From NCBI RefSeq assembly GCF_001619985.1, contig NW_017264193.1:2609726-2673725 (forward strand): a stretch of 64,000 bases of DNA. Direction: 5' to 3'. This stretch comes from Xylona heveae TC161 (taxonomy: Eukaryota > Ascomycota > Xylonomycetes > Xylonales > Xylonaceae). Below, piece by piece: positions 28,918-45,261 of this stretch. Position 1 is the first letter of the stretch; each line of letters opens with the position of its first letter. Position numbers and translations under genes: made by a program. The notes beneath the pieces are model-generated. The model saw only the letters and a program-made list of their open reading frames with translations, made no database searches and was not told where the DNA came from.

Positions 28918-29947
28918 TCAGTTACTCTCCTCCTTTCTCTGGTTCAACCAGGCATGCTCTGGACGAAGATAGTACAGCACGCAGAAACGATTCTTTGCGC
29001 CAGGCACAGGCTGACTGACACGATGCAAGCAGGACAAGAGCTTTTTGTCGGACATGGCCTGCAAGGAGTCTGCCACGTTGACAATGGCATGGCCGGGCTT
29101 GGGATTGATAAAGGCCCACGTGTCCTCTGTGCCGGGGATGCGGAGCTGAGTCGTGTAATCGTCGCAGAAGAGCAGAGTTAGCGTGCCCATGTCGGTATGC
29201 TCAGACGGGGGAATGTCCTCGAGACGGTCCCACATGGGCGCCGACTCCATCTTCAGGGCGCAGTCGCTCGATTGACCATCGCGATGACGGTGCTCGAACC
29301 GTGCGTCGCCTTCGAGCCCCATGCTGTCGGAAAGATGAGAGAGCATGGTCATGGTGATGGTATGCGAGGATGAGATGAAGTCTTTGATGAGCCCTGAATG
29401 GGACCGCATGCTGGCTGGAAAGCTGGCAGAGCTGGTATTGAAAGCTTCTTCGCGGGCAATCTGCAGAAGTGTCAACGAAAATACAAGTCCAGGGCACAAC
29501 TGTAGAGGGATGAAGCTTGAAAGAAGATTGCGTCAACTTACCTCGAAAGTCTCCGCGTCAATATCGGATTTGTATCTGAATGATCAGTAAGATGTCATGA
29601 GATGTGAGAAAACACAGAGGAAATTGGAAACGCAAAGATTGTTGCATACCCTCTGTCTTGATCTTTTCGAAAGTCCTTCATCTTGACTTCCTTGGATTGC
29701 GAATAATATGATTCGCCGAGCTTGTACAAGCCCTTGAGATCCGTCAGGTACCCATCCTGTGGAGTCCCACGCTGAAGATCGAGATAGAAGAATCCCGGGG
29801 ACTGGGCGACCCTAAAGAGTTTCTGAATCTCTAAAGAGTCATTTTTGGTGAGACGCTCGTAATTGACAGTCTCCAACGGCGCCGTCTCAATGCCTCTGCC
29901 TTGGACGACGGTAACGGGCAAAGATGTGCCGTTAGCAACTCCGACCA
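28918..29947 (-). CDS. 2-oxoglutarate/Fe(II)-dependent oxygenase, isopenicillin-N-synthase-like
   Basis: Exons 29947-29649, 29576-29543 and 29460-28918 give 291 residues in phase. The N-terminal DIOX_N-type half includes VAQSPGFFYLDLQ. The iron site is HTDMGTLTLLF (HxD) with the distal histidine in CLHRVSQPVPG; the 2-oxoglutarate-binding Arg is probably in NRFCVLYYLRP. All facial-triad residues are present, so it should be active. The family hydroxylates, desaturates or cyclises small molecules, often in secondary metabolism. The substrate cannot be read from sequence. At ~291 residues it is slightly short. It is the first gene after the tRNA and 2.2 kb from the DHA2 transporter, so it may or may not belong with the genes to its right. 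Confidence 0.85.
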
Positions 29948-32113
29948 TTTTGGCAATGTACTGAAAGGGAGGTGATGAATAAGAATAAGACTTTTGGTTG
30001 GAAGATGGACGAGGAGGGGGACGGGTGTGACCCAAGCGTCTTCGTTTTCTGCCAATAATGTCAACAAGGTATTCCAAGCTCAACGGGGACATATAAAAAT
30101 GCAAATCCATAAGGTTGTACAGCTCACAAAGGGGCGAAAAAGAAAAGAAAAAAAAGAAAAACGAGGCTGATACGCGGCAACTTGGTAGTAGGAAGTAAAT
30201 ACCTTTTGATGATTAGAGATGCTTTGGTTCAGCGCACAGCATGAAACCCTTTTTCTACTGCTTCTTACAAAGAAGGTAGATATATCATCTGCTCATCTCT
30301 CAATGACAAGATCCATTGAAATAAATCAGGACGAACGCAATCGCGACCCCTCAGCTGTCCTCAACTTGAACGACTTCCCCTCCTTTGACCGGCGACCCCG
30401 CCCCAGCTTCCACATTGAACGAGAATAAAATGCAAGAGCCAGACTGCAGCTTGCAGTCTGCAGAAAGCTAAGGGCATGGAAAAGCATGGACAAACTAAGA
30501 ATTACGTGTTGCGTAACTCGTATTGCGTATAACCTCATGTGGCTTCACATTGATGTCGTACAACAATACAAATCATGGAAGGGGAAAAAAAGAAACAGGG
30601 GTATACATCAATGCAGCTGCATAACAGGGGCATGAAGCAAAAACTGACGGTCGAGCGGGAGTGGAGATTTGCATAGCTCCTTGCCCGGCGTCCAGATCTC
30701 AAGACTAGGATCGTCCACCAAACTAGCCACGGAATAACAAAACCCTTGTTTTGGTAGATCGTCGTGACCAAGGTCTATCCATCTTTCTCGCTCGGCTGGG
30801 GCCCCAGCTTTCCTTTGGCGCCTGCAGACTTAGTGAGCAAGCTGATGCAGGATGCAAGATGCAGAAGTCGTGTGTTCGGGGTCCCTGGCAACGTCCAAGC
30901 TTCCCTCGGGCACCCTCGTTATGCCGGATGTCGCCCCGTGCGCCCTAAAGTAGTGCTTTCCCATGGATCGATCAACTCCTAATAATCTTCCCCGCTGTAG
31001 ACTCGTGCCGATTTGGGTTACACTACCTTGTTGGAAGAAAACGTCAATTGTCACAATTTCTGGCTCCCCCACCGGTAGAGGAGAAGCATACGCTGTTACT
31101 GACGTTAGTTGGTCAAGCAGAGAATTCATCATCGACGATCTTCACCTGGCTTCAGCTGCATTGCTTCGGCATCTTTCACAGCTCAGGCTGTCGATCTGTG
31201 TTTAGTGAGGCGAGAATTGCCGCGGTAAGCAGCTCATGACATGCCGCAAACCTCCAATTAGACCCGACCAAAATTCCACGGGCAACGAAAATGACGATCA
31301 ACAAAAAAACCAGGATTAATATCAGCAACGTATGGACCAGGGGGCAAATGATCGATGAATAACTAATTTTTCTCTCTGTCCCTTTCCAGTGTCATGCCGC
31401 TTTTGCCCCCCCCCCCCCATGCGCATGCCACGAAGGAGCCCTGAACAACATTCCAAACCCAACTGAATGCTGCATCTCGTAACTGAGCATCGCCTATTTT
31501 CGCTCCCGGAATGCCTGGTGTCATAACTGTCTTGTACCCGCAAAGTAGCTAACCATACTTCAGTAAAAATTCTCCAGTTATAGAAGGTACTCACATGAAC
31601 TGACCAAATAAACTGAATCCCTGATCAACCCCTCATCCAATAGCACGTCTGAGGTTATTGACACAGACCATTTGGAATACATACCCCTTTTTAATTTTAT
31701 TTTAGTTTACTCTTCTTATTTTATTTTATTTATTTTATTTATTTTATTTATTGATTTTTTTTTTTTTTTTTTTTTTTTGGTTTCTTTGGATTTGCTGTTT
31801 TAACACCACGAAGCCAGTTCGTGAAATTCTACACAATGTCAAGCTCCAATAAAAAATCTATACGGATCCATAATATTCCAATCAATATTTCAGCATGTCG
31901 TTATCTTTATTTGCACAAAAGCTTCGTATAATATCAATCCATCCAGTAACCCGTCGTATACACAATCTATCTTGGCTAAGAATATTATGCCCGTCTAATA
32001 TGCAAAGTTGATACAGCTGAGACAAATCTCTACCTCGTAGCGAGTACGCAGGAGTATGGCACCATGCAGACGAAGAAGCGTGAGAATGTCTCTCAATGCA
32101 CACTGATACTTCT
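29948..32113. other. 2.2-kb gene-poor region with low-complexity tracts
   Basis: Promoter of the 2OG oxygenase gene on the left, 3' flank of the DHA2 transporter on the right. Contains a 13-nt C run (31406-31418), and TTTTATTTA-type repeats running into a long T run at about 31681-31780. Open frames at 30751-31205 lack domains on either strand. No transposon ends or duplicated target sites seen. Confidence 0.45.
31681..31780. repeat. TTTTA/TTTAT microsatellite and poly-T tract
   Basis: Imperfect tandem TTTTATTTA units followed by a run of more than 20 T. Simple-sequence DNA in the 3' flank of the DHA2 gene. Confidence 0.8.
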
Positions 32114-34298
32114 CTACCTCAATGGATGCTCCCTAAGCCACAATATCAGAGGTAAAGCTAAGGCGGTAGTGACAAGTGACATGACTGCAAGACATAATAA
32201 AATTAGCAACTTATCTGCAAATATGAAACGCTCGATCTGGCCATTTATACGCTACTCACTCGGAACTAATTGGAAACTTTGCAGATACTCTGTTCGCACT
32301 ACAGATTTCAGCTTGGCAGGCAGGGTTGCTGCGAACCTAGCATCATCAAGTATCCCCTGGATCAGCTTCAGAAAGGTGTTAGCAGCCTAGTAGCACGGGC
32401 AAGATAAAGATAAGGTGTATTAAAAACGTCAAAAGAGAAAGAAATCCGCGTATCATACCTGATCTCTTTCGGGAAAGCCGACAAGTCTCTCAAATAACCT
32501 GCTCCGGAAGTCTGCCCGTAAAAGAGTTGCCGCACTCCCAATTCCAATGACGGTCCCGACTTGCTGGCTCAAATAATACATACTTATAGCGATGGCCTTT
32601 TGGGCTGTTGGTGCACTTGCTGAGAGCCCAACGAACTGGGCAGACAAGACCATTCCAAAAGTGACACCGACGGGAAATATATAGAATGACTCGAAAATAT
32701 TGGCGCCATGGCGCCATCGCAAAACGACGAGAGTATAGCTGATGCAGGCCACTATTATTGTAATAGCAGATAGGGTCTTATAACGAAATGTCCTGTTCAG
32801 ATCGACAATTAATTGGTGTTATGAAGCTTTAGTAAATGAAAATCATGCAGACGTACCTACTGATGACTGCTCCGGAAAGCAGCGCTCCAACAGCATTACC
32901 CACACTTGAAGGGACAATGAAAGCAGCAGCGACAGTGTTGGTGGCATCCATTGTTCGTATGTAGAATGTTGCAAGATGTGATAAGGTCTGCACCAAATTT
33001 ATCAGCGAAGTTCGCATAATAAGACTTCAAACAGACTTACCGCGAGTCGACCCCAGAAAACGAGAATTTGAACCAAACAAGAGATCCCGACTCCATTTTC
33101 TCTGATCAACCACAAGGGGATTAGGGGCTTTACGGCCCAAAACTTCTCAATTAAGACGAATGCCAAGCTGCAAACACTGCAAGCAGCTATTAACGCAATA
33201 ACAACAGGATGGCTCCACGGTAGCTTTTGACCTCCAAGATCAAGAAAAAGGAGAAATGAAACCATGCTGATGACGAATGTTATCACACCAAGGAAATCAA
33301 CATCCTTCCACTTTGCCCTTTTGGAAGACCGACATGAATGCTCATTGTGAGACTGGGCAGGCCCAGAGGGAAGCGTGTATTTAGCAAGTACCAAACATAG
33401 TAATGCAATCGGTGCCTGTGCAAGAAAGGCCCTATTATCCCATCAGCCTCAGCTCACCACAGAAGCGAAGCTGCATGAAATTCTTCTCTCACCATCTCCA
33501 TCCAATCGTATCTGCCAAGAAGCCTCCGAGAGGAGGGCCAGCACTACGACCTGCGACAGCTGCAACATTGACATAGCTTCGAAGAACAGCCACCTGCTCC
33601 AAAGTTGCAATATCTAATTCATTTTCTATTAGCTTGTGAGAGATGAAATCGGAAGTACCGCACTTTACCGGTTATAATGACTGAAATGAGGGCTACCATT
33701 CCTGCCCCGCCGATACCATTCACAACCCTGCCGGCGATGGCCTGCCAAAGACCGACGGCGGTTCCCCTGGGGCAGCAATGAGTATTCTTCCATCTTTAAG
33801 AAAGGTCATATCCGAGTTGGGCAGCGGAGAGAAGCTTACGAAGTGAGGCAACCAATACAATACAGACAATAGGCCGCTAAGAGAGGTCTTTTACGGCCGT
33901 AGATATCACTCAACCTTCCGTACTACAACCCACGAGAACTCAGTTAGTATCGGCACACAAGCATCCGGGTAAAGAATTTACCAGAGGTAAGGCGACACAA
34001 TATCCCAAAGTATAGCCCGTCATAAGCCAAGGGCCGTCTGTCAGATTTTGGAATTCAGATGCCACTTCGCCATACATGGAGATGACCAACGACTCATCTC
34101 CGCCGGCCAAGAAGACGCCTACACGATCAATTACAACTTCAATTCTCCGTAGCAAGATGCCTCAGACTTACCAAATAGTGCCACCGCAATACTAAGCGGA
34201 CTGGCGCCGTGCAACCCTCGGCGCGAGCCATTCTCTCTGTCCTCTACCTCTTCTCCACCGGGCTTCTGGATAAGTGGTCTGCGCTCTGGCTGGTCCAT
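32114..34298 (-). CDS. MFS transporter, DHA2 / VBA-like (14-helix) family
   Basis: Many-exon gene starting at 34298 (MDQPERRPLIQKPGGEE). Exons can be followed through GDESLVISMYGEVASEF, the motif-A exon YGRLSDIYGRKRPLL, GRVVNGIGGAGMVALIS, the motif-C-like exon GRSAGPPLGGFLADTIGW, SFLAQAPIALLCLVLAKYTLP, and later helices to the last exon (SLVTTALALPLILWLREHPLR, stop 32114-32116). About ten exons with introns of 50-70 nt. This is the pattern of vacuolar basic-amino-acid transporters (Vba) and drug:H+ antiporters of the 14-TM type: proton-driven export of small molecules, or import into the vacuole. It lies head-to-head with the synthetase paralogue across 2.2 kb, which makes it a candidate exporter or self-protection protein for that cluster. 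Exact exon ends in the middle were not all checked. Confidence 0.87.
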
Positions 34299-36516
34299 AG
34301 TCTTGAGTAGCCTTCTCCGTCTTGTCAGATTAAGGGGAAAAAGCTCTTCAAATTACTCCCCAGTGATGTACAAGAAACGCGAATATTTGCAGCCATTTTC
34401 TCAGGGATGTGGACCATGGAAGTTTGAGCGAATCATTGCTCTTGCGAGGGCAAGCCGGAATCGGGACTACTCCGGTGTCATTGCTGTAATGACTGCAATT
34501 ATCCGCCCTGTCCGGCAGGTTTTCTCCGTCGGCCGGGATAATCGGAATAAACTGTAGTCTCGTACTGCGGTGAGACATAAAGAGACACATGGGCAGAGAC
34601 GGTGAGTGCTTGGGCAGTGTGGAGCTGTGTCACTTCGACTTGAAGATTCGCCAACCACACACATTACAGGTTGCTTCCTTCCATTCTTACCCCTTTTGGA
34701 AGGGAAACAAAGCATGGTTTTGAAGAGTAAAAATGAACCAACAATTGCACATTGCCACCTCGAGTAGACAGACCCACACCGCCGTGAGCTGATGTTGCGG
34801 TTGCAAAAGAGGGAAGCCAATCCGTGCATGAACCAGTTGCTGGGCTGTTGAAAGAGGTCAGATTCAAAGCAAGGATTTGAAAATTCCTCTCATTTGGCTC
34901 CGCCATAAACAACACAAGGATACCAGCTATAGGGGAAGCTGGCTCGCGAGGCTTGGGAAATAATTCGTGCAAGGTGTTAGCTGGATGAATGACGCCTCCA
35001 GCTACAAACCACCGAGTGACAGAGTTGTCGCCTGCCACACTTTTCTTGAGCTAACACCTCAATAGGCAACCCGGTGGCTATCCCGCCATGCGTGGTTGCT
35101 AAAAGATCCACTTTGATGGTTTCCTTTGGGACGTTTCTTAGCATCGAGCTACTCCTTCTCCCAAGGAGCTTTCGTAGAGGCCAACCATAAGCACAGAAAG
35201 CGACACGAGTTACTATCATGGGAACAAGCCATCTGTGATATCAACTGGTCAGTCGATGGCGTAAGACGATCTCTGCAGGATCAGCACGGTCCGTTCATGA
35301 TATTCGGAACCAGACGTTGACTTCCAGTTCAGGAGTAGATTCCTTTAGGATCTCATGCCGGCTTTCGGATCCAACGACACCAATGGATTGGATTCGCCGA
35401 GTTTTGCGGGTTCAGGCTAATCCCAAGTGGTGGCTTTCTATATTGAACGCCCGAATGCAGATCGCCCGGAGGGGACAGAATTTGAGCGCGAACACAAGGT
35501 CTCAAGCGCCATGTGTGTTCGCAGGGCAGGGCAATTTTGCTGGGACCAGCTTTCCCCGCATCTACAAAGGAATGCAAAGCCCTCAAAATTAGGGGTCCTG
35601 GGCGTACGCTTGTTCTGCATCGAGATCGGAGCGACCAGCGTCATCTTCATACTTGGATATGGCAAGCTGTAAAATAGTTAATCAGCCTCACGATCTAGCT
35701 CCAGCGGGTCGTCCCGCTGTTTGGCTGGAGTGTTACCCGAGTTAGCCTGTCTCCTTCCCTTTACCGCAGTGTCATTTTACCCTAGGAGTATTTCAGCGAC
35801 CCACTGTCAGCTTGGCGTGCGGAGGGGAGAAGCCAAAAGACCAACCCCCGGTCCGTACATGTCTTGGGACTACTAACCCTTTTCCACAGTTATGCGTATT
35901 TCGCTGGCCGACCACCAGAAAGGCGCACCCTTGACGAAAAGAATCTGCTTCAAGACCCTGGATAATAATACAGCCATCATGACCCTCTCTCAATCATTTC
36001 AACCAATGACTGATTATCCTTGTCAACATATGCAGTTACGTAAAATGCTCCTTGAAGAGTACGCAATTTCTCGGCGCACAAAGCGCGGACCAAGAGGCCA
36101 GGGTTCATTATGCAGACAAACACAGCATAACACGAGGGAGCTGGAACAGAAAGCCTTGCTCGGCGTTCTTCCATCAACTCTTGCTTCGGAATGTCTTCTG
36201 GTAATCAAACGCACGTTTGTCATCTCGACCAACTCTGACAGGGGTTTTCGAACGTCATGGGAAACAAGCTGCACATGTGAAAGCTAATATTGTTGGAGGC
36301 AGCGGCTGGGTATCTGATCGCTGCCTCCTCTTTTATACTTTTTCAGCGAGGAAGATAGGCTTCTCTTCGACGGAACTTCGAGACTGGAACGAAGATATCC
36401 TGTGCTTCATCCCCATTAGAAGCATATAGGACGCCTCTTCCTATTTCACGGCCGATTCAATTGGTGACATAAACTCATTCAGATAGGGAGCTTGGGTAGT
36501 ATTCTGCGCCACCAAT
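34299..36516. promoter_or_regulatory. 2.2-kb divergent intergenic region between DHA2 transporter and synthetase paralogue
   Basis: Separates two divergent accessory genes and should hold both promoters. It contains two pairs of ATTATCC/GGATAAT in inverted order (34498 with 34536; 35960 with 36014), which include GATA cores, and a nested hairpin at 35699-35730. Open frames of 80-130 codons exist on both strands (34664-35038 minus, 35892-36287 plus) but none shows a domain or convincing fungal coding character. A short unrecognised gene or decayed gene cannot be excluded. Confidence 0.4.
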
Positions 36517-38171
36517 ATGGCCTCTATTTCCGATGCAATTCTCCAACGCAAGCTCGATCTCATAACTAGAAGGTTAACTGAAGTGGATGGTTTGGAATTG
36601 GTGAAATCTATCCTAGCAGAAGGCCGGAGTCCGAAGACATTCTGGGGTATGTTCAAAAGAGAAAGCCTTACGGGATCATGCTGTAATTGACCAATTTTAA
36701 AATTTTTCAAAGCGACCGCGCCGACTGGAAAACGTAAGATTGTTTGATCAAAGAACTATCTCTACAATTTTTTTTTAACTTGTTCCAGCACATATCGCTT
36801 ACTTTGTCCCAATCACAAAATTTGCGGACTTTGCGAGGGCGGGAGTTGATGTACGTTTCTTCTGATTGTTCAATAGAGTTTCCCAAGGTTTGCTAACATA
36901 TGTCTTAACGAATATAGGTCACGGTGCTCATCTGCGGTATGATAATATCAACCGATCCCCCTTCGCAAAAAGATGTGTCACTAACGCATTGTAATTTCTT
37001 AGATCTGTACGCGTTCTTGATCAACTTCAAATATCCATATGAATTGGTTCGACTCCGGGCACAATGGTATCGCTTTATGATCAGCGCCGTGTTGGACGTG
37101 CTGGGAGTACCACGATCTAAAATACGTTTTGTCGAAGGGTCATCCTATGAGCTGTCGCCAAAGTTCACGTTGGAGCTCTATAAGCTCACAGCGTTGACTG
37201 AACAGGCCGACTTGAGGGCCATCGGAGATGAACTTCACGACACATCAAAGCTGAGTCCTCTGCTCACGCCCGGAATAACGGCGCTGGCGGAGGAGTATCT
37301 CAATATTGATTTCCAGTTCGGCGGCGAGGACCAGGTAAAAGTCCAACGCGGCTACACCAACACAAAGCATGGTAGCTAACACAGTGTTTTCTGAATGCAG
37401 CGTGGTTTATTCCGCTTCAATAAACAGTCCTTATCCCAGATGGGATATCGTACTCGGGGATTTATGATGAACCCAATGGTTCCTGGTCTTTCCGGCCCCA
37501 AGATGTCTTCCTCAATTCCGGACTCGAAAATCGAGTTTCTGGACCCGCCCGAAGAAGTCAGCCGCAAGATAGCAATCGCATCTTGCAACGAAGGGGATAT
37601 TATTGAGAACGGTGTCCTTGCTCTCTTGCGATTTGCCTTGATCCCAGTCAGCGAGTTGCGCTGGGAGACGAGAGAGACCCGCCATGAGAAGGTGGCCCAG
37701 ACGAATGACATTGGTTTTCCCAGCAATGGCTTTTCTTCGAATGGGATTGACCTGAATGGTTCGGGTTTCCATGATATTCATGTCAATGGTCATCACGCCA
37801 ACGACATCGAGACAAACGGATCCAACGTCAAACACGTGAATGCTGAAAGGGATATTAATGGATTTGGTATCCTCTACGGGCTACCGCTGAGACCATTTTG
37901 CAGTAAAGATGCTCCCGAAGGCACGGTCTTTACCGTCTCCGTTGGCGAGAATACTGGCGATGAGCCGAGTCAATTGAAGCACTACGGATGTTATCAGCAC
38001 ATTGAAGATGACTTCGCTCAGGGCATTATCAAGCCAGCAAATCTGCGAAGGGCGGTCGCTGCTGCAGTCAATGATCTGATTGCACCATTGCGACGGTCTT
38101 TTGAGGAAAACAAGGAATGGCAGAAAGTTGATCGGTTCGGGTACCCTGAGGAGTACGCTGCCAGGAAATAG
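36517..38171 (+). CDS. Tyrosyl-tRNA-synthetase paralogue with a changed amino-acid pocket
   Basis: Six exons in phase: 36517-36646, 36713-36733, 36789-36850, 36918-36936, 37003-37334 and 37401-38171, giving 444 residues. The class I fold of eukaryotic cytosolic TyrRS is clear. ATAPTGKPHIAY (44-55) is the HIGH-type motif, LICDLYAFL keeps the Asp that contacts substrate, FQFGGEDQ keeps the Gln (188), NPMVPGL leads to KMSSS at 222-226, and the C-terminal helical anticodon-binding region is present. The residues that bind tyrosine are not kept. Human Y39 aligns with F42, Y166 with T166, Q170 with T170 and D173 with A173 (bacterial Y34, Y169, Q173, D176). Residues ~295-333 are an Asn/Gly/His-rich insert absent from yeast and human TyrRS. 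It is probably still able to bind ATP, but should not use tyrosine well. An essential housekeeping TyrRS must lie elsewhere. Likely a cluster enzyme or a resistance-type paralogue. Confidence 0.9.
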
Positions 38172-39850
38172 CGATGCAGAATTGAGGAGTCGTTTCATTT
38201 GCGCAACATCAGTCATGCTCAGCGGAAGTGCACATTTTGTTTTAGTCAGTCATAAAGTATTACAATTGAGTATTTAAGTTTTGCATTACCAAATTCAGAT
38301 CAATGACAAAGCAGTGTACAGTAAAATGGAATTTATAGTTTGGATATGTTCATCTCTCTCTTACTCTATTTCATTATAATCCAGAGCTTCTCGATATCAC
38401 CAAGAGGATAGGGTCGAAGCGCATGAGATTCATCGATAGCCTCACCCATGAAGTTACAGAAGTATGCCAGATGGCAAAGAGGACCGTGGGTAACTTGGTT
38501 TCGTATGCAACTGGTTGATACCTGTTATTGTGATGGCGGAATATGATACGCCGGGCGGGGTTGGAGAATAGGAATGTTACGGTCACCGTTGATGATCCGA
38601 ATCATTTGGTAGGCCAAGGCTAGACGTCACGGCCGAGCTCGGATCCGTGGTATGGTTTGGCACGCAACTAATCAGCAGCTTTTTTTTTTGTGGAAACGAG
38701 CCGGACGTGCTCTTGCATCTTCACCGAGGTTGTGCTCGGACTCGACTCCGAACTACATCAGATACCTACTGAAAAAGGCTTGGCGAGAATTTCGGATCGC
38801 ATCATGCAGTTTATTCAACTCGAGGGAGCATCTGCGAATCAAGTGGGCCGACTCGTGCATCAAAACTAGCAAAAAAGGGGTTGCTGGCGTGCTGAAATAC
38901 AGTTGAGGGTGATGCAATTGTTGGCACCGCAAGGGCAAAAGGATAGCGGGGGACAATCCCTGAGTTCGAACCCTAGCGGGCCCAGCCGTGACAGCTTAGC
39001 GGACAGTCCCGCATCAACCCCAGCTGTTCATTCTTCCCCCTGCTACATGGGCTGTCGTGTAACAAAGCCCAGTACATCGAAGGGAACTTGCAGTTTCCAT
39101 ATAGTAATGCTTTGGCTTCCAGTTCTGCGAAAGCCGGAAATGATCCGCCGAACAACTTTATGCAATGTGTAGATACCTTACCATTCTGGAGACACGAGTG
39201 GCTGCACTCGCCATTGGCTCGATCGTCATCGGCTTTGGCGCTTCAGGGAAATGATGGCGAAAAAAAAAAAAAAAAGCTCATGCCTCTCATCAATGAGAGA
39301 TCGATGTCCAGGGGCCCTTGATGCGCCTTCATCCTCCCAAGAGCTGAGACCTGATCTCATTGTGAAGCCTGAGCAGGGATATTCAGCTAATAGTCTTGGA
39401 TCCACATTCTCAGTTCTGGCATGGATTTGTCCGATGATCCTGATGCAGCTGACAGTGATGCCAACATGCATCAAGCATTATTCATGTGAATACGAAATGC
39501 GAACAAGGCAAATAAGGGATCGTCACTCTACGATCTCACATAAGGCCCTATGAGATCGGACCAGCTTTTGCATCCCTAGACACCCATAACGAAGCAAAGT
39601 CAACGTTTCAACTGCGAGTCATCGATTGCCTCCTTTCAGGTTAGTTGACGACTGTTCTCTTTCTCCTATAGCCTCCTAATCGCACATTGCGAACAAGTTG
39701 AGTGTTGCCTCAGAGTTCTCAAAGGAGAAGAGGATCATGGAGACCGTGCAATGACAATTCAGATGAAGCATATAAGATTATTACTTGTTGGTGCTCTGCT
39801 AACCCATTGACGATCAGACTTGCCCGTCAATACGGAAGACTGCAGACACC
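38172..39850. other. 1.7-kb intergenic region between the synthetase paralogue and the HDO gene
   Basis: 3' flank of the synthetase paralogue and promoter of the HDO gene. Contains a T run (38681-38690) and an A run (39259-39274). A TTCGAA sequence at 38964 resembles a tRNA T loop but has no tRNA around it. No gene recognised. Confidence 0.45.
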
Positions 39851-42094
39851 ATGGATCTGTTCATTGAGAGGATTACCATCATATTCCCGGGCATAGCTTT
39901 CGTAGTAATCTTTGGTTACTTGACCACACTTTTGCGGAGTACGCTTCGACAGTCAAGAGGAAAGAGCCGTGAATGGTACCCCTCATTTTTCTTGCACCCA
40001 CTCTCGAATGCGTCCTCAGCAAAATCTACACACCAAGCTGAGAGACCCTCGCACGCCTCTTCCCCGGTCTCGCAGAGCTCGCAATGCGAGACAACAGACC
40101 TTTACAAGGAACTATACTACAAGTTACAAAATCTTGAAACTTTTCCGGACATACTTCCTAAGGCGAAAGATACGCTGGTTTCTATGTTCGCAGAGGCGCT
40201 AGCCAGTGCAAATCCGGACGACGGCATTTTGTCTGTCAAAGAATACTCCAGGGATGCGCTAGCATCTTTTCTCCAGGAAAAGGAAAATAGCATTACGGAG
40301 CGATGGCAGCAATACATCGCGAGAAGAAACGCTGGGGCTCCACGCGAGCTATTTGAGGACGCAGTGCAGGCGAGCTGGTGGCTAAAGCAGAGCTCGCCGG
40401 TCCGCTACGTCGACGGTGCCTGGCTAGGGCACATCAACAAGATATCAACTCCTTTCAACCTCCGTTCAATCACGAAGCACGCATGGCAAGTCTTATCCGA
40501 AGAACTCGGAGATGGCGACCAAGCAAAGAATCATGTTCATCTTTATCGTGAATTAATGAGAGAAATCGAGGCCGGTTTACCAGATGGAGACAGTGAAGAC
40601 TACATCCATCCCAAAACCGGACTTGATCAGCCTCGGGTTTGGAAAGCCGCAGTCTCTCAGTTGCTTATATCTCTATTTCCTCACGAGTTTTTGCCTGAAA
40701 TCTTAGGATTCAATCTGTCGTTCGAGGGAATCACAATGGAGACTCTTATGGCTTCCAAGGAGTTGGAGGAGCTGAAGATCAACCCATATTATTTTGTCTT
40801 ACATGTAACGATTGACAACGCTGATTCAGGCCACACTGCAATGGCACTACATGCAACTGCGGAATACGTAGAGCATATTCGACACACCCAGGGCGAAACA
40901 GCAGCACAGCAAGTCTGGAAGCGCGTCCAGACTGGGTTTGTCCTGTCTGAGAGCCTTCCTACTACACCAGTTTTACGGCCAGCTCAAGCGCAAGAGTCCA
41001 AGCTCGACAATCCTTGGGCTTACAGAGTGGCAAAGATATTCAAGGCAAAAGCTGTGGTCGCACATAAAATTCATTGCAACACGAGCTTCAAAATTGGTCG
41101 TCGAACTTTGGTCGATTGGTTAGAACCTGCTGCGTTTGAATCTCCGCAATGGCAAAAAGAATTCCTCGATGCTTTGAGCAATAGAAAACCATGGGTCTAT
41201 AAAGGGGACAGCAACAGAAGCAGACTAGTGCAAGAGCTGGGTTGGGGCGGAAAAATGTTCGGATCTTTCACCCGTGAAGAGATTGAAGTGGTGAAGCAAT
41301 GGATCGATTCCCTCGCCGCCCCTAACCCCCATAATTACTGGTCCTTTATAGGCTGCGCCCCGAACGCTTTGACAGAATCTCAAAAACTCGACATCTTTAT
41401 GGACTATCCAGTATTCTCACCTTCGACGTCTCCTGCTGGCCAGTTGCTGCCATTGAGCCATTTGATACTGGATCAGTCGCTTCAGGCCGAACTCCTAATG
41501 ACCAGCGAGATTGACATGCAAAAATTCTTACCGCTTTGGTTTGCGCATCCATGTCTTCTGGAATCATTCATTAGCGTTCCTTTCGAAGCTTCTGGCTCAG
41601 CAATGTCTTCAATCACGCGCCTTCTGCGAGCACAGTTTGGGTTTGGTATTGAAGGACCTTGGGTAGATGGCATGGACGAAATTCGACGATCGGGTAGCAT
41701 CGGTCTCGTCGAAATTGGCTTGGAAATAGTCAAAAGAGCGGACGAAATTCCCATTCCAGGGTCACTGAAAGATGTCATGGAAAATGGAGATGCCGAGTTT
41801 GCCACGACGATGTTAGACCTTTCAATGCGCCCCAAAGCTAATGCAGCAGTCCTACTGGGCCTTACCTCGTCATTCATTGATCTACATGCCGCAATTGCAG
41901 TTTCATCGCTAGACCTGCTCTCGCCGGAAAGCAAAGAGCTTCTTGGACAAATTTCATGTCGGGAGCGCGCAGCACTCGAGTCTTGCTGCGAGAGCTTGCT
42001 CAATTCTAAAAAGATAGCCGCAGAGGGCTTCAATGAGGGCTATATGCTGGGTAGGATGAAGATTAGGGAATGTTTTGAGATCCCGGAGGTTTAG
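39851..42094 (+). CDS. Membrane-anchored haem-oxygenase-like diiron oxidase/oxygenase (HDO, iron-containing redox enzyme)
   Basis: Single exon, 747 residues. Residues ~8-28 form an N-terminal membrane anchor (FPGIAFVVIFGYLTTLL), followed by a Ser/Gln-rich linker. The HDO domain covers ~150-360. YVDGAWLGHI (186-195) is a family landmark. Candidate metal ligands are E217/E218 and H228/H230 in SEELGDGDQAKNHVHLY, E283 and E292 in FLPEILGFNLSFE, and H318, D322 and H328 in HVTIDNADSGH. Family members (UndA, BesC, SznF and others) use a labile diiron centre and O2 to cleave, desaturate or N-oxygenate fatty acids and amino acids. The C-terminal ~370 residues, including GGKMFGSFTREEIE, are a second helical region I cannot name. 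The ER anchor is like that of fungal P450s. Substrate unknown. It lies 1.7 kb downstream of the synthetase paralogue on the same strand. Confidence 0.8.
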   Translation: MDLFIERITIIFPGIAFVVIFGYLTTLLRSTLRQSRGKSREWYPSFFLHPLSNASSAKSTHQAERPSHASSPVSQSSQCETTDLYKELYYKLQNLETFPDILPKAKDTLVSMFAEALASANPDDGILSVKEYSRDALASFLQEKENSITERWQQYIARRNAGAPRELFEDAVQASWWLKQSSPVRYVDGAWLGHINKISTPFNLRSITKHAWQVLSEELGDGDQAKNHVHLYRELMREIEAGLPDGDSEDYIHPKTGLDQPRVWKAAVSQLLISLFPHEFLPEILGFNLSFEGITMETLMASKELEELKINPYYFVLHVTIDNADSGHTAMALHATAEYVEHIRHTQGETAAQQVWKRVQTGFVLSESLPTTPVLRPAQAQESKLDNPWAYRVAKIFKAKAVVAHKIHCNTSFKIGRRTLVDWLEPAAFESPQWQKEFLDALSNRKPWVYKGDSNRSRLVQELGWGGKMFGSFTREEIEVVKQWIDSLAAPNPHNYWSFIGCAPNALTESQKLDIFMDYPVFSPSTSPAGQLLPLSHLILDQSLQAELLMTSEIDMQKFLPLWFAHPCLLESFISVPFEASGSAMSSITRLLRAQFGFGIEGPWVDGMDEIRRSGSIGLVEIGLEIVKRADEIPIPGSLKDVMENGDAEFATTMLDLSMRPKANAAVLLGLTSSFIDLHAAIAVSSLDLLSPESKELLGQISCRERAALESCCESLLNSKKIAAEGFNEGYMLGRMKIRECFEIPEV

Positions 42095-42955
42095 TCATAT
42101 GGAGCATGTGAGGGGGAAAAAAAAAATTTGAGACATTTGTATACTTGTTCTGGACATCCTTTGAGGTCACGGAGGTGCCGTTGAAGGAGATGAGAAAAGC
42201 GCGACAAAGTTCTTTTTCCGCAAATCATTTTGGTTTTCATGCAAATACGTTTGAACAAAATGCTTGAAGCAGCCTTTCAATCATTCCTTTCATTGTTTGT
42301 TGTGGGATCTATTTAACGTTGCATTGATAGGATGGCCAAATTGATCAAAATGCATGGGTTCCTTTCTGAGTGGAGCTTTAGAGTCGAACAATATGCCTTT
42401 AATACGAAGCTCCAGCTAGACAAATGGGCTCGTATGTAAAAGACAACCAACTTGAGTATTCTGGCATAAGTTGCTGGCGACCTAACTCATTCGAGAGGTG
42501 ACGTTGACAGTGAGTTAGCGGTTGATAGACTGTCGTCTGCCAAGTTGTTACTTTTATCGGAGTAGCGTCGCCCCGGTCCTGGCACTTGTCCACGTTACCC
42601 CCACGAAACCCCGCATTTCGCTAGCAGACAGGCGGAAGCGAGGTTCGGCAATTACTGTAGTTAATCACCGAGGACAAACAAAGTTACAGCGGGCTTGCTT
42701 GTGTCTGAAGGAAAGCAGCAACGAAGCTCGGAGACTTCACCCCGATCCGTGGAACGTCATTGAAGATGTTGACTGGCCGAATGAGCCGCCAACAGGTGAG
42801 GGAGAGGGGGTGGGAGGACTGGCGCGACCGTTCGTGACGAATCCCCTGCCGCTGATCCGAGGGTTGGAGTCACGGTCTTTTCTTGCAGTCGCCCTTGCGT
42901 GATACTCTTGCATTACAGATTATTTCATTCTTTGCTCAAGGCCAATAGTACCATA
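42095..42955. other. Intergenic, HDO 3' flank and permease promoter
   Basis: About 860 bp. A 126-codon plus-strand frame at 42522-42902 has no recognisable domain and ends just before the permease start, so I treat it as chance. Nothing else seen. Confidence 0.45.
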
Positions 42956-44751
42956 ATGAAGCTTAATATACTGCATTCTGAAGATTTCGAGAACGGGCGG
43001 GGGTCTTCGGAGAAGGAAAAGATTGAAGGCGCGACCCCTGGTCACATCGCTGACCAACGCTTTGAAGATCTCCCGCCAGATCCAGACGCTGGACTCAGTG
43101 AGGAAGAACGAAAACGCATTGTACGGAAATATTCTGGACAAAATATCTTTCGTGTATTGAATCTCAATTGACTTTGCTTGAAACTAAATACAGGATCGCA
43201 AGCTGCTTTGGAAGCTTGATATAAGATTGATTCCATGGGTTCGTCTTCTTCACGAATGTTGGGATTGCGCCCCCAAAGCTTACTTGTGGATTGACAGCTT
43301 TGCCTACTTTACCTCGCTTCCTTCCTTGACCGTACAAATATTGGCAATGCAAAAATTGCTGGCTTGCCTAAGGATCTGCACTTGACGAATGGACAGTATA
43401 GTGCAGCGCTTTCTGTCTTCTTCGTCTCGTACGCGCTCTTTGAGCCTCTGACCAATGTTTTGCTGAAGCGTTTGCGACCTCGCGTCTTCCTACCCATAAT
43501 TATGATTTTATGGGGAATCTGCATGACCACCATGGGCCTGACCCACAACTTTTCAGGCCTCGCTGCTGCGCGTTTCTTCCTTGGGCTTGCAGAAGCCGGC
43601 CTGTTCCCAGGAGTGAATTACTACCTATCGTGCTGGTATAAGCGTTGCGAATTCGGCATTCGATCTGCCATATTCTTCTCCGCTGCAGCCGTGGCAGGCT
43701 CCTTTGGTGGCTTGCTTGCCGCAGCCATTATCCAAATGGATGGTATTGGTGGAAAGCCTGGTTGGGCATGGATCTTTGTGAGTCCCCTTTCTCACCGTCT
43801 AATCTCCACAAAGAGATGAACACGACTAATATCCGCACCTTAAGATCCTCGAAGGACTGGCAACGGTGGTTATCGGAGTCCTTTCATTTTGGATGGTCCA
43901 TGATTTTCCCGACGAGGCTCGCTTTTTGTCTGTTGAAGATCGAGAGCGAGTCATTCGTCGACTCAAGGAAGACAAGCAATCCAGCGCAGAGCATGAAGAG
44001 TTCAAGATGAAATACTTCTGGGCTAGTGTAAAGGACTGGAAGACGTGGAACTCTGCGATTGTCTACATGGGTGCCGACGGCGCCCTGTACGCCTTTTCTC
44101 TCTTTTTGCCCTCGATCATCGATGAGCTCGGCTATACATCTATCAAGGCTCAATTACTTTCCGTCCCTCCCTACGCTGCGGCGTGCATTCTAACAATTCT
44201 TGTTGGATACATTGCTGATCGTACTCGTCAACGTGGATATTGCAACATGGCAACGTCTTTACTCGGCATTACCGGATTTTGTATGCTCTTAGGCGGCAAA
44301 TCCGCTGGCGTCAAATATGCCGGCACATTTCTAGGCGCCTTGGGAATCTATCCGTGTATTCCCAACACCATTTCCTGGTCCAGTAACAATACTGAAGGAG
44401 TTTACAAGAGAGGAGTCACCTTGGGATTCGTCATAGGCTGGGGCAACCTCAACGGTGTGGTCAGTAGCAATATATACCGGCAGTCAGATGCACCGAGGTA
44501 CATTCCTGGACATGCCGTTGTACTGGCATATTTGGTGCTCTTCTTGCTTTGCGGCTCAATCGTGCAGCATTTTCTTCTTGCTCGAGAGAATGCAAAGAGG
44601 CGTGCCGGTGAAAGAGACGGTTGGGTAGCTGGCAAGAGCCAGGAGGAGATTGAAATGCTTGGTGATAAGAGGTGAGTTGAACAAGTTTAGGCTTCCAAAG
44701 AATTGAGTATCTAATAAATTGCGCAGGCCAGATTTCCTATATACGCTCTAG
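42956..44751 (+). CDS. MFS permease, Dal5/Tna1-type anion:cation symporter family
   Basis: Five exons in phase: 42956-43120, 43194-43238, 43298-43777, 43845-44671 and 44727-44751, giving 513 residues. WKLDIRLIPW-LCLLYLASFLDRTNIGNAKIAGL is split between exons 2 and 3 and is the hallmark first helix of the Dal5 (allantoate/nicotinate/pantothenate) family. RFFLGLAEAGLFPG-type and NYYLSCWYKR motifs follow, then YIADRTRQRG and TISWSSNNTEGVYKRG. The 25-nt last exon restores the usual end RPDFLYTL, so the in-frame stop right after exon 4 is intronic. These proteins import carboxylated small molecules such as allantoate, nicotinate, pantothenate or amino-acid derivatives. On the right end of the accessory block it could supply a precursor. 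Confidence 0.9.
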
Positions 44752-45261
44752 TGTCCCAGAGATACCAAGGTGAGATGGAAAAGTCAGGGTCTTGGCGTTG
44801 CACATGGTGTCCAGTGCACGTGTGTGTCTATCTGGAACGCTGCCGTCTTCATATCTAATATGGGTCTTGCGCACCATGAATCGGTGATATTCAGTAATAA
44901 TTTGCAGCTATATAGCTTTTGCCTCTTCAAGTGCCCAATTCAGGATCAATTTCGTTTATATTTTGCGCCCACATTAGTAATCCTCCGAAGCTGTATCTAT
45001 TATCTGAACATTAAATTTATTGATTGCGTGAGAGAGTGCTTCGTGCAGAGCTGCATTACATTTGTTTGTATGCAGCGGTGCCTTGAGCCAAACAGGAACA
45101 AGTTTGCCCAGTGTGTAAGCGAGTCGGATACCGGCTACCCCAGACCCTCCCCGGATAAAGTACGAGAGTAAGCGCCGGGCAACTTTTTTCCTTTTTGGAG
45201 GGTTTCTTTCACAAAACAAACAAACCACCACCTCAGCCATCTCACGACGTCCACCCGAAAA
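44752..45261. other. Intergenic, permease 3' flank and promoter of the glycosylase gene
   Basis: Marks the return to housekeeping genes. No supported gene; AT-rich around 44880-45010. Confidence 0.45.

What the first reader, a model, noticed from the sequence alone, without database searches (positions are those of the whole stretch)
36517..38171. Tyrosyl-tRNA-synthetase paralogue whose tyrosine-binding residues are all replaced
Seen: HIAY and KMSSS are intact, and Q188 and the Asp of LICDLYAFL are kept, but the positions of human Y39, Y166, Q170 and D173 are Phe, Thr, Thr and Ala. Known: Y39 and D173 bind the phenol OH, Y166 and Q170 the alpha-amino group. Inference: the enzyme still makes an acyl-adenylate but with another acid, perhaps one without a free alpha-amino group or without a hydroxyl; or it is a drug-resistant or regulatory copy. 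A synthetase rewired at the amino-acid pocket inside an accessory block is rarely described in fungi.
Basis: partly seen in the sequence, partly recalled or inferred. Interest (0 to 1): 0.93.

Follow-up and report, generated by a model that had tools for sequence, protein, structure and literature searches.

The report
Rewired fungal tyrosyl-tRNA synthetase relative
A fungal gene descended from the enzyme that loads tyrosine onto its tRNA keeps the ATP-using motifs but has lost most of the residues that grip tyrosine, so it probably activates some other acid, perhaps for a small-molecule pathway.

Summary
A clean six-exon model (36517-38171 +, five GT-AG introns, 444 aa) gives a eukaryotic cytosolic-type TyrRS core, 111 of 221 residues identical to human. 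HIGH, KMSSS and GG-DQR are kept. Y39, Y166, Q170 and D173 are F, T, T and A. The change is wider than reported: of 14 published residues within 5 A of the tyrosine site of M. jannaschii TyrRS, 9 are replaced, each invariant in human, yeast and 25 archaeal enzymes wherever present. Control: M. jannaschii TyrRS, a normal enzyme less like human, changes 15 of 55 invariant columns (window 19) but only 1 of the 11 invariant pocket columns (window 9). Two anticodon-contact positions are also lost. Neighbours: a TRI12-type pump and a haem-oxygenase-like iron enzyme; no NRPS or PKS in the parts scanned. Best reading: an adenylate-forming enzyme of changed specificity that no longer makes Tyr-tRNA. Regulatory pseudoenzyme, early pseudogene and resistance copy remain. 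Substrate, pathway and a normal TyrRS elsewhere are untested: no genome of this fungus and no collection of fungal genomes was available.

The parts
36517..36646 (+). exon 1 of the TyrRS-like gene (start codon; F42 = human Y39)
   Evidence: gene model; alignment
36713..36733 (+). exon 2, 21-nt micro-exon coding TAPTGK; the codon split across the exon 1/2 junction gives A44 (human G41)
36789..36850 (+). exon 3, HIGH-like motif HIAY
36918..36936 (+). exon 4, VTVLIC; C77 = human A74
37003..37334 (+). exon 5: DLYAFL (Y80 = human H77), E127 (Q124), T166, T170, A173, GGEDQ with Q188 kept
37401..38171 (+). exon 6: KMSSS loop, linker with about 90 residues more than human, helical anticodon-binding domain with anticodon-contact positions changed (W283T, D308N in human numbering), stop codon
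32114..34298 (-). neighbour: TRI12-type MFS efflux pump gene (approximate span, multi-exon, not modelled in full)
   Evidence: PF06609 E 1.7e-6; start and stop read
39851..42094 (+). neighbour: single-exon 747-aa haem-oxygenase-like iron-containing redox enzyme
   Evidence: ORF; PF14518 E 1.4e-33
28921..29948 (-). possible outer neighbour: 2OG-Fe(II) oxygenase (approximate span, multi-exon)
   Evidence: PF03171 E 3.8e-12; DIOX_N weak and below its cut-off; start read

Best explanation
The gene encodes a neofunctionalised descendant of the eukaryotic cytosolic TyrRS. Shown from sequence: intact spliceable gene, TyrRS core, ATP-side motifs kept, amino-acid pocket rebuilt, anticodon-contact residues lost. 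Inferred: it still binds ATP and forms an acyl-adenylate through HIGH/KMSSS, but with a carboxylic acid other than L-tyrosine, with no phenol to be held by Y39/D173 and with an absent, blocked or differently placed amino group (two of three amine ligands gone, Q188 kept). Inferred more weakly: it hands the acyl group to a small-molecule or carrier acceptor instead of tRNA-Tyr, as a stand-alone ligase in a small-molecule pathway with the neighbouring haem-oxygenase-like iron enzyme and efflux pump.
For: Intact 444-codon model with canonical introns. Changes sit in the pocket: 9 of 11 strictly invariant first-shell columns changed against 10 of 44 other invariant columns, one-sided Fisher p = 5e-4, the same with the contact list of PMC6207623 and the 5 A list of PMC11723616. 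The diverged but normal M. jannaschii TyrRS (79 of 210 core residues identical to human; window 111 of 221) changes 15 of the 55 columns yet only 1 of these 11 by the 5 A list. Leave-one-out: 0-6 changes in each of the 27 homologues, 19 of 55 here. G46, H49, G184, G185, D187, Q188, R189, K222, M223, S224, S226 kept. W283 -> T and D308 (Mj D286) -> N. Groups with human and yeast in the tree (98/98). Neighbours: TRI12 pump and haem-oxygenase-like enzyme.
Against: No biochemical or comparative fungal data; no second copy of this variant was found to show that the changes are conserved. The total number of changed invariant columns (19) is little above that of a normal diverged enzyme (15 in M. 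jannaschii, two of them gaps); only their place is unusual. The branch of 1.99 is likewise no longer than that of M. jannaschii, 2.12. Neighbours lie 2.2 and 1.7 kb away and may be unrelated. The identity drop in the anticodon domain is modest (31% to human, 39% for human-yeast). Relaxed constraint is not excluded.
Confidence: 0.5

Rival explanations
1. Regulatory or partner pseudoenzyme: it no longer activates an acid usefully, but dimerises with the normal TyrRS or senses ATP or a metabolite.
For: Class Ic synthetases act as homodimers, and double-length TyrRS pseudo-dimers with one inactive half are known in trypanosomes (passages of PMC9437257 and PMC5370408). Most invariant pocket columns changed.
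Against: HIGH, KMSSS and GG-DQR are kept, which a non-catalytic partner would not obviously need.
Confidence: 0.2
2. Recently disabled, drifting duplicate (early pseudogene).
For: Long branch; 19 of 55 invariant columns changed.
Against: Intact reading frame and five canonical introns; changes are concentrated in the pocket while ATP-side invariants are kept, which drift would not favour.
Confidence: 0.12
3. Self-resistance (target-duplicate) TyrRS that charges tRNA-Tyr in the presence of a local TyrRS inhibitor.
For: Fungal clusters can carry resistant synthetase copies: cladosporin with Lys-tRNA synthetase (table passage of PMC10320164). An efflux pump lies next door. A phenolic natural product, resveratrol, binds this same pocket in human TyrRS (passage of PMC6207623).
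Against: The protein loses four of the five polar tyrosine ligands and two anticodon-contact positions, so it could hardly charge tRNA-Tyr. No inhibitor-making backbone domain in the parts scanned.
Confidence: 0.1
4. tRNA-dependent aminoacyl transferase like SbzA: takes an acyl group from a tRNA charged by another synthetase, or charges a different tRNA.
For: SbzA, an IleRS relative with slightly modified HIGH and KMSKS, does this in SB-203207 synthesis (passages of PMC6331615). R189 and the helical C-terminal domain are kept.
Against: Anticodon-contact positions W283 and D308, and K190, are changed.
Confidence: 0.08

Closest known systems
Eukaryotic/archaeal cytosolic-type tyrosyl-tRNA synthetase (class Ic; human YARS1, yeast TYS1)
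   Same: About 50% identity over the catalytic core, HIGH-like motif, KMSSS, GG-DQR, helical C-terminal domain
   Different: 9 of 14 first-shell tyrosine residues replaced; two anticodon-contact positions replaced; about 90 extra residues in a linker; three-residue deletion before the SPLLTPG segment
Synthetase-derived natural-product enzymes (SbzA from IleRS, AcmF, AlaRS-like)
   Same: Synthetase reused outside translation; SbzA keeps HIGH and KMSKS with slight changes (PMC6331615 and PMC12945691 passages)
   Different: Those are from Streptomyces and related to IleRS or AlaRS, not TyrRS; no function has been shown here
Cyclodipeptide synthases (also in fungi)
   Same: TyrRS/TrpRS-like Rossmann domain used outside translation (PMC12945691 and PMC2922099 passages)
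   Different: Described there as highly derived relatives found by profile or structure; this protein keeps the ATP-side motifs and about 50% core identity to TyrRS
Cladosporin-type fungal resistance synthetase (LysRS; gene name Cla4 recalled)
   Same: Synthetase relative in a fungal genome (cladosporin entry: PMC10320164 passage)
   Different: A resistance copy must stay active on the cognate substrate; here the cognate pocket is dismantled

Membership tests
Tyrosyl-tRNA synthetase (functional, Tyr-specific) | Class I catalytic motifs HIGH and KMSKS | tested here: met
   HIAY and KMSSS
Tyrosyl-tRNA synthetase (functional, Tyr-specific) | Tyrosine phenol ligands Y39 and D173 | tested here: not met
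   F and A; Y in 25 of 25 and D in 27 of 27 homologues that cover the site; kept in M. jannaschii too
Tyrosyl-tRNA synthetase (functional, Tyr-specific) | Alpha-amine ligands Y166, Q170, Q188 | tested here: not met
   T, T, Q; two of three lost
Tyrosyl-tRNA synthetase (functional, Tyr-specific) | Anticodon contacts (human W283 and D308; Mj F261 and D286) | tested here: not met
   T and N; D286 role from a passage of PMC11723616; F261/W283 role recalled
Tyrosyl-tRNA synthetase (functional, Tyr-specific) | Curated NCBIfam cut-offs | tested here: inconclusive
   below both: NF006330 165.6 bits against 220; TIGR00234 74.9 against 113.8; models serve prokaryotes and no eukaryotic control was run
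Tyrosyl-tRNA synthetase (functional, Tyr-specific) | Activates L-tyrosine and charges tRNA-Tyr | not testable with these tools
   needs ATP-PPi exchange and aminoacylation assays
Class Ic synthetase superfamily by descent | Sequence homology over the catalytic domain and place in the tree | tested here: met
Self-resistance target duplicate | Retains the essential activity of the target | tested here: inconclusive
   pocket and anticodon-contact residues lost; activity not measured
Self-resistance target duplicate | Second, sensitive copy elsewhere in the genome | not testable with these tools
   no genome held
Natural-product biosynthetic cluster | Canonical backbone enzyme (NRPS, PKS, terpene cyclase) nearby | tested here: inconclusive
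   none seen in a six-frame Pfam scan of 29500-39400 or in 20 selected ORFs; other ORFs were not scanned and introns can hide domains

The most novel reading that the evidence does not exclude
A TyrRS has been converted in a fungus into the acid-activating backbone enzyme of an otherwise backbone-less pathway: it adenylates an acid lacking the tyrosine phenol and the usual alpha-amine (possibly a product of the adjacent haem-oxygenase-like iron enzyme) and ligates it without tRNA.
Probability: 0.25. Interest if true: 0.85.

Novelty: new variant of a known kind. Interest (0 to 1): 0.62.

Why it matters
Synthetase relatives reused outside translation are known; those in the passages I saw come mostly from bacteria, with fungal ErdS (AspRS) and fungal cyclodipeptide synthases as exceptions. 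I saw no close TyrRS relative of this kind in a fungus in those passages or in the capped listings of eight full-text searches aimed at it. If it activates another acid, genome mining that looks only for NRPS and PKS would miss such pathways. It would also be a natural counterpart of the pocket rewiring that genetic-code engineers build into TyrRS (Y32 and D158 changes, PMC11723616 passage), extended to the alpha-amine site.

Tried and rejected
Own-genome search for a normal TyrRS: no genome held. Viral contigs for relatives: nothing. The one genome-contig scan reaches prokaryotes only; it gave 25 archaeal TyrRS loci, used as a conservation baseline. AlphaFold model of the haem-oxygenase-like neighbour from one sequence: mean pLDDT 36.5, unusable, so no fold search. 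PDB gave nothing significant for that neighbour (best E 0.22) and NCBIfam nothing. Direct or inverted repeats of 25 bases or more in 31500-44900: none reported. tRNA genes: none found by ARAGORN with the bacterial code. Literature: 10 of 10 searches used; two of them were for residue roles.

Considered and rejected: bacterial or mitochondrial-type TyrRS (best matches are cytosolic eukaryotic); TrpRS (NCBIfam TrpRS models far below cut-off); total loss of invariant residues as evidence on its own (M. jannaschii TyrRS changes 15 of 55).

Full report
What is there. The window looks fungal (short introns; fungal families such as TRI12 and Pam17); no whole genome is held for it. The locus 36517-38171 (+) splices into a 444-aa protein from six exons. 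All five introns start GT and end AG, the frame closes, and one exon is only 21 nt, coding TAPTGK. The protein matches human cytosolic TyrRS at 6.4e-83 and yeast TyrRS at 6.5e-81, with Pfam tRNA-synt_1b at 1.4e-29. It falls below two NCBIfam TyrRS cut-offs, made for prokaryotes.

Observation. Aligned to human and yeast, the stated substitutions are right: Y39F, Y166T, Q170T and D173A, with Q188, HIAY and KMSSS kept. As a baseline I fetched 25 archaeal loci encoding cytosolic-type TyrRS. They were found by motifs from the three-sequence alignment, so they lean towards the eukaryote-like form; L018, L021 and L023 are incomplete. The four positions are invariant wherever present: 25 of 25 sequences for Y39 and 27 of 27 for Y166, Q170 and D173, human and yeast included.

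How broad the change is. Across human, yeast and the 25 archaeal sequences there are 55 strictly invariant columns (at least 20 sequences covering); the window protein keeps 36 and changes 19. In a leave-one-out count the 27 others change 0 to 6 (6 of 61 in L019 and 6 of 60 in L025 are the most). A published list of residues within 5 A of the tyrosine position in an engineered variant of M. jannaschii TyrRS (passage of PMC11723616) maps to human 39, 40, 41, 42, 43, 72, 74, 77, 152, 166, 170, 173, 188 and 191. Nine of these 14 are replaced (39F, 41A, 74C, 77Y, 152L, 166T, 170T, 173A, 191L), and all nine are invariant in the homologues that cover them. A separate list, the resveratrol contacts in the human tyrosine pocket (passage of PMC6207623), has 13 residues and gives the same nine. 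Among strictly invariant columns, 9 of 11 pocket columns changed against 10 of 44 others, one-sided Fisher p = 5e-4 with either list. With only the five polar ligands the enrichment is weaker (4 of 5 changed, p = 0.043); with my own nine-residue set p = 4.4e-4. I191L and V152L are conservative. G41A rests on the splice junction between exons 1 and 2.

Control that cuts both ways. M. jannaschii TyrRS, a normal enzyme not used to define the 55 columns, is less like human (79 of 210 core residues identical, against 111 of 221 for the window). It changes 15 of the 55 columns, two of them gaps, so the window's 19 is not remarkable as a total. But it changes 1 of the 11 pocket columns by the 5 A list and 2 of 11 by the resveratrol list, where the window changes 9. 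The place of the changes, not their number, is the finding.

What is kept. H49, G46, G184, G185, D187, Q188, R189 and K222, M223, S224, S226. So the ATP side looks functional while the amino-acid side is rebuilt. Q124E (Mj Q109) and an E at human I186 put two acidic residues in or near the pocket; they might hold an amine in another place, which is speculation.

tRNA side. Human W283, aromatic in the 26 of 27 homologues that cover it, is T; D308 (Mj D286), D in the same number, is N; K190 is G. An engineered D286R change is described as enhancing anticodon recognition in Mj TyrRS (passage of PMC11723616); the role of F261/W283 is recalled. Overall identity in this domain falls only modestly: 31% to human against 39% for human-yeast. 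A three-residue deletion lies before the SPLLTPG segment, and the linker after the KMSSS region, rich in N and G, has about 90 residues more than human.

Descent. A maximum-likelihood tree of 26 rows (22 archaeal loci, human, yeast, M. jannaschii and the window; L018, L021 and L023 left out as incomplete) puts the protein with human and yeast at 98/98 support, on a branch of 1.99 against 0.33 and 0.54; M. jannaschii has 2.12. The tool warns that the place of long rows is unsure.

Neighbourhood. On the left, a TRI12-type efflux pump gene (minus strand; PF06609); on the right, a single-exon 747-aa iron-containing redox enzyme (PF14518, 1.4e-33). Farther out lie a 2OG-Fe(II) oxygenase and an MFS transporter. 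Gaps are 2.2 and 1.7 kb. No NRPS, PKS or other backbone domain appeared in six frames of 29500-39400 or in 20 selected ORFs; other ORFs were not scanned, and introns can hide domains. Beyond these the window has housekeeping genes (glycine cleavage H protein, Mgm1-like dynamin, Pam17, ThiF family, acyl-CoA dehydrogenase). Whether the block is one pathway is unproven.

Mechanism. Most likely the enzyme binds ATP, adenylates an acid other than tyrosine and passes it to an acceptor that is not tRNA-Tyr. Shown: sequence features only. Inferred: adenylation, substrate class, acceptor and pathway. I put about 0.5 on 'adenylating enzyme of changed specificity' and about 0.25 on the tRNA-free pathway version. 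A resistance copy is less likely, because it would need the very residues that are lost. A regulatory pseudoenzyme or an early pseudogene cannot be excluded without orthologues.

Known context. Synthetase-derived enzymes outside translation are known: SbzA, related to IleRS (PMC6331615 passages), AcmF, AlaRS-like (PMC12945691 passages), cyclodipeptide synthases with TyrRS/TrpRS-like folds, some in fungi, and the fungal AspRS fusion ErdS (PMC9437257 passage). Fungal resistance synthetase: LysRS for cladosporin (PMC10320164 passage). TyrRS duplicates named in the PMC9437257 passages are TyrZ and the double-length enzymes. I saw passages of these papers, not whole texts. Eight searches aimed at a fungal TyrRS relative of this kind listed none by title and abstract start; several listings were capped (for example 25 of 463 papers), and the library lacks most subscription journals.

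Noticed in passing
39851-42094 +: Single-exon 747-aa protein with a haem-oxygenase-like iron-enzyme domain (PF14518, residues 192-378 of the scanned ORF, which starts at 39803) and a hydrophobic N-terminus; no significant PDB or NCBIfam relative by sequence.
   Followed up: partly
28921-29948 -: 2OG-Fe(II) oxygenase-like gene next to the block, with a weak DIOX_N match.
   Followed up: no
36713-36733 +: 21-nt micro-exon encoding TAPTGK of the synthetase.
   Followed up: yes
37680-37870 +: N/G-rich low-complexity linker inside exon 6, absent from human and yeast TyrRS; it could not be compared with filamentous-fungal TyrRS.
   Followed up: partly
34300-36500: About 2.2 kb between the efflux pump and the synthetase with no Pfam domain in six frames.
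   Followed up: partly
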